The notes beneath the pieces were generated by a model. It saw only the letters and a list, made by a program, of their open reading frames with translations. It was not told where the DNA came from and searched no databases. Made by a program: the position numbers and the translations under genes. 64,000 nucleotides of DNA from Curtobacterium sp. L6-1 (GTDB lineage: Bacteria > Actinomycetota > Actinomycetes > Actinomycetales > Microbacteriaceae): the NCBI RefSeq assembly GCF_018885305.1, contig NZ_CP076544.1, forward strand, positions 2,914,001 to 2,978,000. The letters run 5' to 3'. Shown in pieces: positions 37,059 to 40,376 of this stretch (position 1 is its first letter; each line of letters opens with the position of its first letter).

Positions 37059-37106
37059 GCCGGACGGGAGGCACGCCACCCGCTCGGCCCGTGCCTCCCG
37101 TCCGGC
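37059..37106 (+). terminator. GACGGGAGGC-family hairpin terminator
   Basis: Arms GCCGGACGGGAGGCACG and CGTGCCTCCCGTCCGGC pair perfectly over 17 bp with a 14-nt loop, after the lipoprotein gene. Confidence 0.85.
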
Positions 37107-37202
37107 GCACCGCGCCACCGCGACCCGAAGACGGGGTGGTGTGCGACGCAGTCAGGCGCTTGACTCGTCGGAGACCGTCCACCCTCGACCAGGAAGGCCG
37201 CC

Positions 37203-38255
37203 ATGCGCTCGCTCGTCTACACCAGCACGCAGACCCGACCGATCTCGGACTCCGAGCTCGCCCAGATCCTGGCGGTCGGCCGCGAGAAGAACACGCGCCT
37301 CGGTGTCACCGGCATGCTCGCGCACCGCGACAGCAACTGCATCGGCATCATCGAGGGCGAGGACGACGTCGTCCACGAGCGCTTCGAGCAGATCCGCCTG
37401 GACCCGCGCCACACCAACGTCCGGGTGCTGTGCGACGACCCGGTGCAGCAGCGCTCGTTCCCGGACTGGTCGATGGCGTTCCAGCCGCTCGACCCGCTCA
37501 TGCGCGAGGTGCCGGGGTTCAGCGACCTGTTCGACGCTCCCCGCCCGTCCGACGCCGAGTTCGGCGCCTCGCGGGCCCGCGCCCTGCTCGAGTGGTTCCG
37601 CAAGCACCCGCTCGCCCCGCTGACGAACCAGCACGCCGCCGACGACGAGGTCCCGCGCACCCGTTCCCTGAACGGCGCGATCGCGGTCCTGCACGACGGC
37701 GGCACGACGAGCTTCTCGATCGAGGCGGTCGCCGAGCGCAGCGGACTGTCCGTGGCGGAGATCGAGGGGCTGTTCCCGAACCGGCACGCCCTCCTCGCCG
37801 CGACGGTCGAGCGCTGGACCCAGGCGGTGTCGGCGCCGCTGCTGCCGATGATCACGACGCAGGGCACGGTGGCGTTCCTGCACACCCTGCTCGCGGCGCA
37901 CGTCGAGGAGCCGGGTCTCATGCGGCTGCTCGCGTCGACGCTCGCCGCCGCGACGGACCCGAAGGTGGACGGCGCCGACTACTACCGCTCGGCCTACGGC
38001 CAGTTCCGGCAGACGATCCGCACGGCGCTCGCCGCGGACGTCCGGGACGGCCGCGAGCCCGCCACGATGGACCCGGAGCGGGGTGCGCAGCAGCTGCTCG
38101 CCCTGTACGACGGGCTGCGCCTGCAGGCCCTGCTGACGACGGACACCGATCCGGTGGACGCGTTCGACCGCGCCGCCGCCCGCATGCGCCGTGGATGGTC
38201 GGAGCACTACGAGCAGCCGACCTACTGGGACATCCCGGTCGCTCCCGCGCCCTGA
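37203..38255 (+). CDS. BLUF-domain / TetR-like fusion regulator, flavin Gln missing
   Basis: The 350-residue protein joins a BLUF flavin photosensor domain (residues 1-95) to a TetR-type HTH (about 155-200, FSIEAVAERSGLSVAEIEGLF) and an effector-domain-like helical region. BLUF landmarks are Tyr6 (LVYTS), Asn30 (REKNTRLGVTG), IIEGEDDVV, DPRHTNVRVL and Trp89-Met91 (FPDWSMAF). The Gln that drives the light switch (FxQxLEG) is replaced: CIGIIEG has Gly48. The protein may still bind flavin but should not photoswitch canonically, so it may act as a redox or ligand sensor. AGGAAGG precedes the ATG. Confidence 0.85.
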   Translation: MRSLVYTSTQTRPISDSELAQILAVGREKNTRLGVTGMLAHRDSNCIGIIEGEDDVVHERFEQIRLDPRHTNVRVLCDDPVQQRSFPDWSMAFQPLDPLMREVPGFSDLFDAPRPSDAEFGASRARALLEWFRKHPLAPLTNQHAADDEVPRTRSLNGAIAVLHDGGTTSFSIEAVAERSGLSVAEIEGLFPNRHALLAATVERWTQAVSAPLLPMITTQGTVAFLHTLLAAHVEEPGLMRLLASTLAAATDPKVDGADYYRSAYGQFRQTIRTALAADVRDGREPATMDPERGAQQLLALYDGLRLQALLTTDTDPVDAFDRAAARMRRGWSEHYEQPTYWDIPVAPAP

Positions 38256-38597
38256 CCCCGGCCGGGAGGCGCGGGTCACCACCATCACGCTCGTGACCCG
38301 GCCCCGGCTCCGTCCCCGCTGAGAACAACCGTTCTCCCCCGTGGAGTGGGGGCGGTGGAGCGCTCCTGGCTCCGACATGATGGTCGTACGGGCGTGGACC
38401 GGGTATCCGCGCTCCGCTCGCTCACCCAGGGTGGTGAGCTGGTCGCCTGGTCGCCTTCGGGTGGTGATCAGGCGGCCGAACGCCCTCCGTCGTCGCAGGC
38501 GCTTGTCCGCCGTTCGTCCGACTGCGGAGCGTGCTCGATCGGGTCTACCGTCGCGTCCGTGCGGCAACGACGCCGCACCGGTCATGAATCGAGCATC
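38256..38597. other. Intergenic region with two dyads upstream of the beta-helix gene
   Basis: No gene is supported. It contains a hairpin (CGGGTCAC/GTGACCCG, 38272-38300) suited to terminating the BLUF-TetR gene, and the dyad GAGAACAACCGTTCTC at 38321-38336. The dyad is a candidate operator for the regulator just upstream or for the secreted-protein promoter. Confidence 0.5.
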
Positions 38598-40376
38598 ATG
38601 CAACGACGGATGAGAAGTCTCGTCGCCCTCGCCGTGAGTGCGGGCGTCGTGGGGGCCCTGGTCCCGGCGATCTCGGCCCAGGCGGTCACGACGAGTGACA
38701 CCCCGGACCTCGGGAGCAACGTCAAGGTCTACAGCCCATCGACCCCGACCTCGACCATCCAGGCCGATGTCGACGCCGCGTTCAACGCGCAGCTCCGCAG
38801 CACCACGGCGCAGTTCGGGTCGCAGCGGCACGTCTTCCTGTTCAAGCCGGGCAGCTACAACCGCGTCTGGGCGAACCTCGGCTTCTACACGACGGTCGCC
38901 GGCCTCGGGAAGAACCCCGACGACGTCACCATCACCGGCGCGGTCAACGTCGACTCCGGGTGGAACGCCGGCGACGAGAAGAACGCCACGCAGAACTTCT
39001 GGCGGTCGGTCGAGAACGTCGCGGTCGTCCCCGAGGGCGGCACCGACCGGTGGGCCGTGTCCCAGGCCGCCCCGATGCGGCGCGTGCACATCAAGGGCAA
39101 CCTGACGATGGGCCCGTCGAACCAGGACGGCGGCCAGGGCTACTCGTCCGGCGGCTACATCGCGGACAGCAAGGTCGACGGTACCGTCACCTCGGGGTCG
39201 CAGCAGCAGTGGTACACCCGCAACTCCACGCTCGGCTCGTGGCAGGGCGGCAACTGGAACATGACGTTCTCCGGTGTGCAGGGCGCTCCGGCGAACGACT
39301 TCTCGAAGAGCTACACGACGCTCGCCACCACGCCGACGACGCGCGAGAAGCCGTACCTGTACGTGGACTCGTCGAACAAGTACCACGTGTTCGTCCCCTC
39401 GCTCAAGCAGAACTCGAGCGGCGCCACGTGGCCGAACACCGCTGGCACCGACATCCCGATGCGGAACTTCTACGTGGCGCACCCGGGCGACTCCGCGGCC
39501 ACGATCAACAGCGCGCTGTCGCAGGGCCTCGACCTGTTCTTCACGCCGGGCACCTACCAGCTCGACTCGGCGATCACCGTGACCCGTCCCGACACCGTCG
39601 TGACGGGCATCGGCTTCCCGACGCTCGTCCCGACCCGTGGCAACGCGGTGCTCACCTCGTCCGACGTGGCCGGCGTGAACGTGTCGAACCTCGTCGTGGA
39701 CGCCGGTCCGCAGAACAGCGCGCAGCTGGTCCGTCTCGGCACGACCGGCTCGCACGTCGACCACGCGGCCGACCCGCAGAGCATCCAGGACGTCTTCTTC
39801 CGCGTCGGTTCGAGCATCCAGGGCAAGGCGACGACGACGCTGCAGGTCAACGCCGACGACACCCTCGTCGACCACATCTGGGCGTGGCGTGCCGACCACG
39901 GCGGAGCGGCCACGGGCTGGACGGTCAACACCGGCGCGACCGGCGTCGAGGTGAACGGCAACGACGTCCTGGCCACCGGACTCTTCGTCGAGCACTACCA
40001 GAAGTACGAAGTGCAGTGGAACGGCAACAACGGCAGGACGATCTTCTTCCAGAACGAGATGCCGTACGACGTGCCGGACAACGCCTCGTGGCAGAGTCCG
40101 ACCGGCGCCGGGTACGCGGCGTACAAGGTCGCGTCGAACGTCACGAAGCACGAGATCTGGGGCGGCGGTGTCTACTGCTTCTTCAACACGAACCCGTCGG
40201 TGCACGCCGACCGCGCGTTCGAGGTGCCGCAGACGGCCGGCGTGAAGGCGCACGGGTTGGTCACGGTGTCCCTCGGTGACGTCGGCACCATCTCGAGCGT
40301 CATCAACGGCGTCGGCGGCGCCGTCCCGACCCCGGCCGGCAACACCTCGCCGAACCGGGTGGCCAGCTACAACTGA
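38598..40376 (+). CDS. Secreted right-handed beta-helix protein
   Basis: The 592-residue exported protein has a Sec signal ending ISAQA. The rest looks like a right-handed beta-helix (pectate-lyase-like or GH55-like fold): repeating short strands with turns such as GFYTTVAGLGKNPDDVTITG, VVTGIGFPTLVPT and GVNVSNLVVDAGP, and Asn/Asp-rich DHIWAWRADHG. It resembles proteins often annotated as adenylyl-cyclase-like or coagulation-factor 5/8-like in actinobacteria. Carbohydrate binding or cleavage is likely, but catalytic residues cannot be assigned. The chosen ATG at 38598 lacks a strong RBS. Confidence 0.78.
   Translation: MQRRMRSLVALAVSAGVVGALVPAISAQAVTTSDTPDLGSNVKVYSPSTPTSTIQADVDAAFNAQLRSTTAQFGSQRHVFLFKPGSYNRVWANLGFYTTVAGLGKNPDDVTITGAVNVDSGWNAGDEKNATQNFWRSVENVAVVPEGGTDRWAVSQAAPMRRVHIKGNLTMGPSNQDGGQGYSSGGYIADSKVDGTVTSGSQQQWYTRNSTLGSWQGGNWNMTFSGVQGAPANDFSKSYTTLATTPTTREKPYLYVDSSNKYHVFVPSLKQNSSGATWPNTAGTDIPMRNFYVAHPGDSAATINSALSQGLDLFFTPGTYQLDSAITVTRPDTVVTGIGFPTLVPTRGNAVLTSSDVAGVNVSNLVVDAGPQNSAQLVRLGTTGSHVDHAADPQSIQDVFFRVGSSIQGKATTTLQVNADDTLVDHIWAWRADHGGAATGWTVNTGATGVEVNGNDVLATGLFVEHYQKYEVQWNGNNGRTIFFQNEMPYDVPDNASWQSPTGAGYAAYKVASNVTKHEIWGGGVYCFFNTNPSVHADRAFEVPQTAGVKAHGLVTVSLGDVGTISSVINGVGGAVPTPAGNTSPNRVASYN

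What the first reader, a model, noticed from the sequence alone, without database searches (positions are those of the whole stretch)
37203..38255. BLUF-TetR fusion that has lost the light-switching glutamine
BLUF domains are usually stand-alone or fused to EAL, GGDEF or cyclase domains; a TetR-type output is unusual. Here Tyr6, Asn30 and Trp89 are retained, but the Gln of FxQxLEG is Gly48 (CIGIIEG). In known BLUF photochemistry that Gln is required. The protein may be a repurposed flavin/redox sensor, or a new photochemistry. A GAGAACAACCGTTCTC dyad lies 66 bases downstream.
Basis: partly seen in the sequence, partly recalled or inferred. Interest (0 to 1): 0.75.

Follow-up and report, generated by a model that had tools for sequence, protein, structure and literature searches.

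The report
Light-sensor fusion without its light switch
A Curtobacterium bacterium carries a fusion of a blue-light-sensor domain and a gene-regulator fold in which the residue that lets the sensor switch with light is replaced by glycine, here and in the relatives where that site could be read, which suggests that an old light sensor was rebuilt for another signal.

Summary

Two findings change the reading. (1) The pocket was rebuilt: Tyr6, His41, Cys46 (Phe in ordinary BLUFs) and His70 are invariant in 99 of 99 main-clade rows; all four are changed in the other 12. (2) The TetR DNA-reading helix is nearly unconstrained (pN/pS 0.79) against 0.008 and 0.015 in two ordinary TetRs of the genus, while the BLUF and C-terminal domains are conserved. 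Related copies lie next to a SpoIIE-type phosphatase gene in 10 of 40 loci (not at the window), five overlapping by 4 nt, three also with an ECF sigma gene.

Most likely: a flavin- or thiol-state sensor without canonical BLUF photochemistry, acting through protein contacts rather than a fixed operator. The 38321-38336 dyad is exact in 2 of 8 aligned loci. BLUF+AcrR in Curtobacterium is already tabulated in print.

The parts
37203..38255 (+). BLUF-TetR fusion gene, 350 aa
37206..37478 (+). BLUF domain, residues 2-92
   Evidence: Pfam PF04940 E 2.7e-26; phmmer to 2byc E 7e-13
37218..37220 (+). Tyr6, redox-active Tyr of BLUF; invariant in 99 of 99 main-clade rows, Phe in 12 of 12 gamma rows
37323..37325 (+). 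His41, invariant in 99 of 99 main-clade rows, changed in 12 of 12 gamma rows
37338..37340 (+). Cys46, replaces the Phe of ordinary BLUFs (Phe in 146 of 151)
37344..37346 (+). Gly48 in place of the switching Gln
   Evidence: Gly 111 of 111 fusions; Gln 151 of 151 short BLUFs
37410..37412 (+). His70 of the Asp-X-Arg-His motif
   Evidence: 99 of 99 main clade, changed in 12 of 12 gamma
37479..37646 (+). linker, residues 93-148; its WFR-containing part resembles (by eye) the C-terminal part of the sister short BLUF
37650..37841 (+). TetR-type helices 1-4, residues 150-213
   Evidence: TetR_N 19.7 bits, below cut-off; model helices
37713..37775 (+). helix 2-turn-helix 3, residues 171-191; the eight least conserved 21-residue windows of the protein start at 167-175
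37749..37772 (+). recognition helix SVAEIEGL, residues 183-190
   Evidence: pN/pS 0.79 for residues 183-191; net charge 0 or below in 112 of 114 rows, though 66 of 114 have a Lys or Arg
37842..38210 (+). TetR C-terminal (BetI-type) domain, residues 214-336, strongly conserved
   Evidence: PF13977 36.7 bits; pN/pS 0.27
37124..37135 (.). CCCGAAGACGGG box upstream; varies between loci; function unknown
37160..37167 (+). TTGACTCG, -35-like element
37191..37197 (+). AGGAAGG, probable ribosome-binding site
38321..38336 (.).

Best explanation
The gene descends from one fusion of a short, Gln-bearing BLUF photoreceptor with a TetR-fold protein of a Microbacteriaceae subfamily whose DNA-reading helix is not held constant. 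The flavin pocket changed: Gln48 became Gly and the Phe two residues before it became Cys, while Tyr6, His70, Asn30 and Trp89 stayed. I infer that the Gln-based hydrogen-bond switch is gone and that the domain reads another state of the flavin pocket, most likely a redox or thiol state around Tyr6-His70-Cys46. That state would be passed to the TetR-fold C-terminal domain (a dimer in known TetRs, recalled), which would act by contact with partner proteins rather than by repressing a conserved operator. In relatives the probable partner is a SpoIIE-type phosphatase and an ECF sigma factor; the window's own partner is not identified. Shown: the residues, their conservation, one clade, the selection pattern, the neighbours. 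Inferred: flavin binding, signal, output.
For: Gly48 111 of 111 fusions against Gln 151 of 151 short BLUFs and all four own-genome paralogues. Y6, H41, C46, H70 each 99 of 99 main clade, each changed in 12 of 12 gamma. The residue matching Cys46 (Phe49 of AnBLUF65, a homology model; my mapping by BlsA numbering) faces the chromophore in a Tyr7-His73-Phe49 cluster (PMC9020721 passages). One clade in both trees: 100/98 BLUF half, 100/100 TetR half; sister BLUFs P0080 and P0081 have Gln. Recognition helix pN/pS 0.79 in the fusion against 0.008 and 0.015 in two ordinary genus TetRs; fusion C-terminal domain 0.27. SpoIIE neighbour in 10 of 40 fused genes, 5 with a 4-nt overlap, with five such genes over cut-off in G000; ECF sigma and DUF4383 genes beside it in 3 of 7 beta loci.
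Against: No experiment shows flavin binding or any signal. The window's own locus has no SpoIIE or sigma neighbour. Nine of the 10 phosphatase neighbours come from two clades, so they are few independent events. The HTH fold is still predicted and alpha3 keeps its hydrophobic pattern. HTH net charge does not separate fusions from ordinary TetRs. Close pairs give a milder HTH excess (0.32 against 0.12 and 0.13). Cys46 next to the flavin rests on homology to one modelled protein, and P0081 has the same Cys beside an intact Gln.
Confidence: 0.42

Rival explanations
1. A working DNA-binding TetR repressor with a flavin/redox input. The recognition helix varies because each strain's regulator has followed a different operator, for example after the gene moved between places and plasmids.
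For: TetR fold intact; a box CCCGAAnnCGGG plus TTGACTCG lies upstream of several alpha genes and the two-part pattern has a single exact match in G000, as a self-regulation site would; neighbours differ between strains.
Against: L098 and L108 share an identical box-to-TTGACTCG stretch but differ at 11 of 25 positions of helix 2-3. Two ordinary TetRs in the same genus keep helix 3 nearly fixed, while a stand-alone paralogue set of the fusion's own subfamily is even freer (pN/pS 1.34).
Confidence: 0.25
2. A true photoreceptor with Gln-independent photochemistry: water in the space left by Gln, or Cys46 reacting with the flavin, relays the light signal.
For: Tyr6, His70 and Trp89 are kept in the main clade; LOV receptors lacking their Gln still signal, with water proposed as stand-in, and about 350 natural ones were found (PMC9098866 passages); BLUF domains, fusions included, are in 58 of 60 genus genomes sampled.
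Against: In known BLUFs Gln loss removes or locks the switch: AppA Q63L is photoinactive (PMC4780082 passage); Slr1694 Q50A and AppA Q63E are locked pseudo-lit (as cited in PMC6695109). Cys46 also occurs beside Gln in P0081.
Confidence: 0.15
3. The BLUF domain is decaying or purely structural and binds no flavin; only the fold is kept for dimerisation or docking.
For: In the gamma clade Tyr6, His41, Cys46 and His70 are all changed while the fused frame and Gly48 persist.
Against: In the alpha set the BLUF domain is as constrained as the TetR C-terminal domain (pN/pS 0.27 each) and the three most constrained windows of the protein start at residues 6-8; the pocket residues are invariant in 99 of 99 main-clade rows.
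Confidence: 0.15

Closest known systems
Short BLUF photoreceptors (BlrB, PixD, BlsA type)
   Same: BLUF fold, Tyr6, Asn30, Trp89, Met91, EG and DxRH motifs; the linker resembles the C-terminal part of the sister short BLUF (by eye)
   Different: Gln48 is Gly and Phe46 is Cys; fused to a TetR fold
BLUF+AcrR protein of Curtobacterium luteum (PMC8508746 Table 4, from Kaushik et al. 2019, not held)
   Same: Same architecture and genus; its 335 aa equals the length of gamma-clade members found here (length match only, accession not compared)
   Different: The passages seen say nothing on the missing Gln, the Cys, the free recognition helix or the neighbours; the gamma clade also lacks Tyr6, which the window protein keeps
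BetI/FadR-like TetR regulators
   Different: TetR_N below cut-off; recognition helix not conserved
[quoted passage not shown]
   Same: Natural loss of a conserved Gln in a flavin photoreceptor family
   Different: Different fold and Cys chemistry; no signalling shown here
E. coli BluF (YcgF), BLUF with a degenerate EAL domain
   Same: BLUF joined to an output domain without its textbook activity (PMC4844311 section 10, PMC8508746 passages); action through contact with the repressor BluR/YcgE (partly recalled)
   Different: BluF senses light; that it keeps Gln is recalled; its output is an EAL domain

Membership tests
BLUF domain (Pfam PF04940) | Profile match over cut-off across the whole domain | tested here: met
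   92 bits against 25, positions 2-92 of 92
BLUF photoreceptor | Tyr-Gln pair that carries out the hydrogen-bond switch | tested here: not met
   Tyr6 present, Gln replaced by Gly48; Gly in 111 of 111 fusions that cover the site
BLUF photoreceptor | Binds FAD and shows a reversible light-induced red shift | not testable with these tools
   needs purified protein
TetR family | TetR fold with N-terminal HTH and helical C-terminal domain | tested here: met
TetR family | TetR_N profile over cut-off | tested here: not met
   19.7 bits against 24; precomputed domains list PF00440 for a few relatives such as P0016, P0019, P0066
TetR repressor | Conserved DNA-reading helix among orthologues | tested here: not met
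   helix 3 mean identity 0.456, pN/pS 0.79 against 0.015 and 0.008 in controls
TetR repressor | Binds an operator DNA | not testable with these tools
   no assay; the dyad 38321-38336 is exact in only 2 of 8 aligned loci
BetI (choline regulator) equivalog | NCBIfam TIGR03384 over cut-off | tested here: not met
   21.9 bits against 201.3
LOV-type thiol-flavin photoreceptor | Light-formed Cys-flavin adduct | not testable with these tools
   Cys46 on the chromophore side is inferred from Phe49 of AnBLUF65
SpoIIE/partner-switch sigma control | Phosphatase gene next to the fusion | tested here: inconclusive
   10 of 40 fused genes (gamma1 5 of 5, gamma2 0 of 3, beta 4 of 7, alpha 1 of 25), not at the window locus

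The most novel reading that the evidence does not exclude
The fusion is a new class of flavin sensor: in a BLUF fold the Phe-Gln pair was exchanged for Cys-Gly, which puts an invariant thiol beside flavin, Tyr6 and His70 and turns a light switch into a thiol-flavin redox switch or a Cys-dependent photoswitch; its output is a TetR dimer that no longer reads DNA and instead controls a SpoIIE phosphatase and sigma-factor circuit.
Probability: 0.17. Interest if true: 0.85.

Novelty: new variant of a known kind. Interest (0 to 1): 0.6.

Why it matters
It is a natural, family-wide replacement of the residue on which BLUF photochemistry is thought to depend, kept by selection together with a new pocket Cys. 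That makes the question 'what can a BLUF fold do without its Gln' directly testable with natural forms: Gln-bearing sister P0080, the Cys-Gln form P0081, the Cys-Gly main clade, and the gamma clade without Tyr, Cys or His. The free DNA-reading helix, shared with a stand-alone paralogue set, also points to a TetR-fold subfamily that may not be made of ordinary repressors.

Tried and rejected
The dyad as operator: exact in 2 of 8 aligned downstream regions; one other exact site in G000, upstream of an OsmC-like gene. Six sites with up to 1 mismatch against 0 for the backward control suggest a real motif of something else; the GAACN4GTTC core recalls actinobacterial SOS boxes (recalled, not tested).

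The upstream box with TTGACTCG as a regulon marker: with up to 2 mismatches the own genome gives 31 forward and 36 reverse hits against 21 and 22 in the control, so no regulon could be named.

Defence system: no PADLOC match. Phage origin: only BLUF-part hits in two Acinetobacter phage records. BetI: far below cut-off.

Two independent losses of the Tyr6/Cys46 set: the best tree (27 rows) has two changes, but one clade is not rejected (p-AU 0.305), so I claim one or two events.

HTH charge as a sign of lost DNA binding: not decisive.

Family survey: one search scored at most 7 candidates per genome, so absence outside the genus is weak; a Frigoribacterium plasmid does carry one.

The model fold search listed only TetR chains, so the BLUF half was not tested by fold. 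A second model, of the BLUF half alone, was not accepted.

Literature: ten searches, seen as listings, with passages or one section of eight papers. None of the listings or passages seen mentions a BLUF that naturally lacks the Gln, but Kaushik et al. 2019, the source of the BLUF+AcrR entry, is not held and was not read.

Full report

The missing Gln is real and general. Of 79 homologues, 75 were aligned; 71 cover position 48 and all have Gly. Pooling context loci, named genome loci and database proteins gave 115 distinct rows, of which 111 cover the site: Gly 111 of 111. Rows are related, so this is not 111 independent events. In 151 related short BLUFs Gln48 is 151 of 151 (these are the hits listed by two searches, 60 and the best 120 of 1804). 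The other four BLUFs of the same genome have Gln. The fused rows form one side of a branch in the BLUF-half tree (100/98) and in the TetR-half tree (100/100); the nearest short BLUFs, P0080 and P0081, both keep Gln. The Gly codon varies synonymously (GGG 17, GGC 13 of 30).

The pocket is rebuilt. Position 46, two before the Gln, is Cys in the 99 main-clade rows (the rows were sorted by it); it is Phe in 146 and Cys in 1 of 151 short BLUFs, that one (P0081) still with Gln. So Phe-to-Cys may have come before Gln-to-Gly. In those 99 rows Tyr6, His41 and His70 are 99 of 99 each. In the other 12 (gamma) rows Tyr6 is Phe, Cys46 is Val or Ala, His41 and His70 are changed, and Gly48 stays. This is one or two events (best tree two; one clade not rejected, p-AU 0.305). 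[quoted passage not shown] I map Phe49 to position 46 by BlsA numbering (Gln51). Hence the four residues look like one functional unit that is kept or lost as a whole. That Cys46 lies next to the flavin here is inference.

What Gln loss does elsewhere. AppA Q63L is photoinactive (PMC4780082, passage). In BlsA, Q51A lowers dark motility to the level seen in light, and the authors cite Slr1694 Q50A and AppA Q63E as locked pseudo-lit (PMC6695109, passages). In LOV proteins, by contrast, signalling survives Gln loss and water is proposed as stand-in (PMC9098866, passages). So lost, locked and altered photochemistry all remain open; canonical switching is unlikely.

The TetR half does not look like an ordinary repressor. 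Using the best-scoring loci of each genus search (30 fusions, 28 and 30 sequences of two ordinary TetRs, 30 of a stand-alone paralogue of the fusion's own subfamily), pN/pS of recognition helix 3 is 0.79 in the fusion, 0.015 and 0.008 in the ordinary TetRs, and 1.34 in the paralogue. For the C-terminal domain the values are 0.27 in the fusion, 0.33 and 0.27 in the ordinary TetRs, and 0.25 in the paralogue. In the fusion the eight least conserved 21-residue windows start at residues 167-175, that is helix 2-turn-helix 3; the three most constrained start at residues 6-8, in the BLUF (its numbering plus one). In close pairs (85-98.5% identity, 57 pairs) the excess is smaller: 0.32 against 0.12 for BLUF and 0.13 for the C-terminal part. 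Two loci, L098 and L108, share an identical promoter stretch yet differ at 11 of 25 positions of helix 2-3. Against this: the HTH fold and its buried positions are kept, and HTH charge does not set it apart.

Surroundings. The window gene stands between a 171-aa gene with a lipoprotein-like start (by eye) and a 588-aa protein with a signal-like start; neither has a Pfam match. The 588-aa neighbour is shared by 6 loci, two more have shortened copies, and the other alpha genes lie elsewhere. Among 40 fused genes in fetched loci, a SpoIIE-type phosphatase gene is the direct neighbour in 10: gamma1 5 of 5 with a 4-nt overlap, gamma2 0 of 3, beta 4 of 7 divergent at 374-566 nt as my gene caller placed the starts, alpha 1 of 25 (67 nt upstream, same strand). 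Pfam confirms SpoIIE (E 6.2e-23). G000 has five such genes over cut-off, so a chance neighbour would be rare, but the clades are related. In three beta loci the order is DUF4383, ECF sigma, SpoIIE, then the divergent fusion; in two further loci (L115, L109) the sigma and DUF4383 genes lie 4-5 kb away. None of this is at the window locus.

Distribution. Matches with E below 1e-100 occur in 41 of 60 Curtobacterium genomes (my count; G043 has only a partial one). In one search no full-length match is listed for the 292 genomes of other genera of the family, but few candidates per genome were scored. The named-genome scan gave 52 loci, 42 of them fusions, all from Curtobacterium or unclassified Microbacteriaceae. 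Plasmids: 8 records have a match over at least 80% of the protein, 7 from Curtobacterium and 1 from Frigoribacterium; the last is annotated as a shortened TetR protein, but the BLUF frame upstream is open with Tyr6, Cys46, Gly48 and His70.

The dyad. GAGAACAACCGTTCTC at 38321-38336 lies between the fusion and the next gene and is exact in 2 of the 8 aligned loci (window, L103), degenerate in the rest. I do not count it as part of the system.

What is known. PMC4844311 gives BLUF proteins as 64% short and 34% with EAL, with no TetR in its main text (section 10 and passages). PMC8508746 Table 4, taken from Kaushik et al. 2019 (not held), lists BLUF+AcrR in Curtobacterium luteum, 335 aa (passages). 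So the architecture is known; the Gln loss, the Cys, the selection pattern and the phosphatase link I did not find in the searches made.

Judgement. Strange and well supported at sequence level, with a natural series of pocket variants that makes it testable; mechanism open.

Noticed in passing
G000:C1:3265939-3266571 and relatives (L256-L285): A stand-alone TetR-like paralogue set (matches in 59 of 60 genus genomes) has recognition-helix pN/pS of 1.34 in 30 sequences with a highly conserved C-terminal domain: relaxed or diversifying selection on the DNA-reading helix.
   Followed up: partly
38321-38336; G000:C1:2618471-2618486: GAGAACN4GTTCTC has exactly two sites in the genome; the other sits upstream of an OsmC-like gene (named by eye). 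With up to 1 mismatch there are six sites against none for the backward control.
   Followed up: partly
38610-40376: 588-aa protein with a signal-like start and no Pfam match, next to the fusion in six loci and shortened in L098 and L099.
   Followed up: no
37060-37105: GC-rich inverted repeat (CCGGACGGGAGGC ... GCCTCCCGTCCGG) upstream of the gene, with like repeats upstream in L097, L101, L098, L099, L103 and L108; looks like a terminator.
   Followed up: no
L333 (Frigoribacterium sp. NBH87 plasmid): The record's annotation covers only the C-terminal part of the fusion; the BLUF-coding frame upstream is open.
   Followed up: yes
L332, L335: The fusion is on plasmids of 112-147 kb in six Curtobacterium flaccumfaciens records; the two looked at are of pv. 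flaccumfaciens and have a recombinase gene about 1 kb downstream.
   Followed up: partly
P0081: Short BLUF without organism name, with Cys46 and Gln48: a possible intermediate, or a cousin, of the Cys-Gly pocket.
   Followed up: partly
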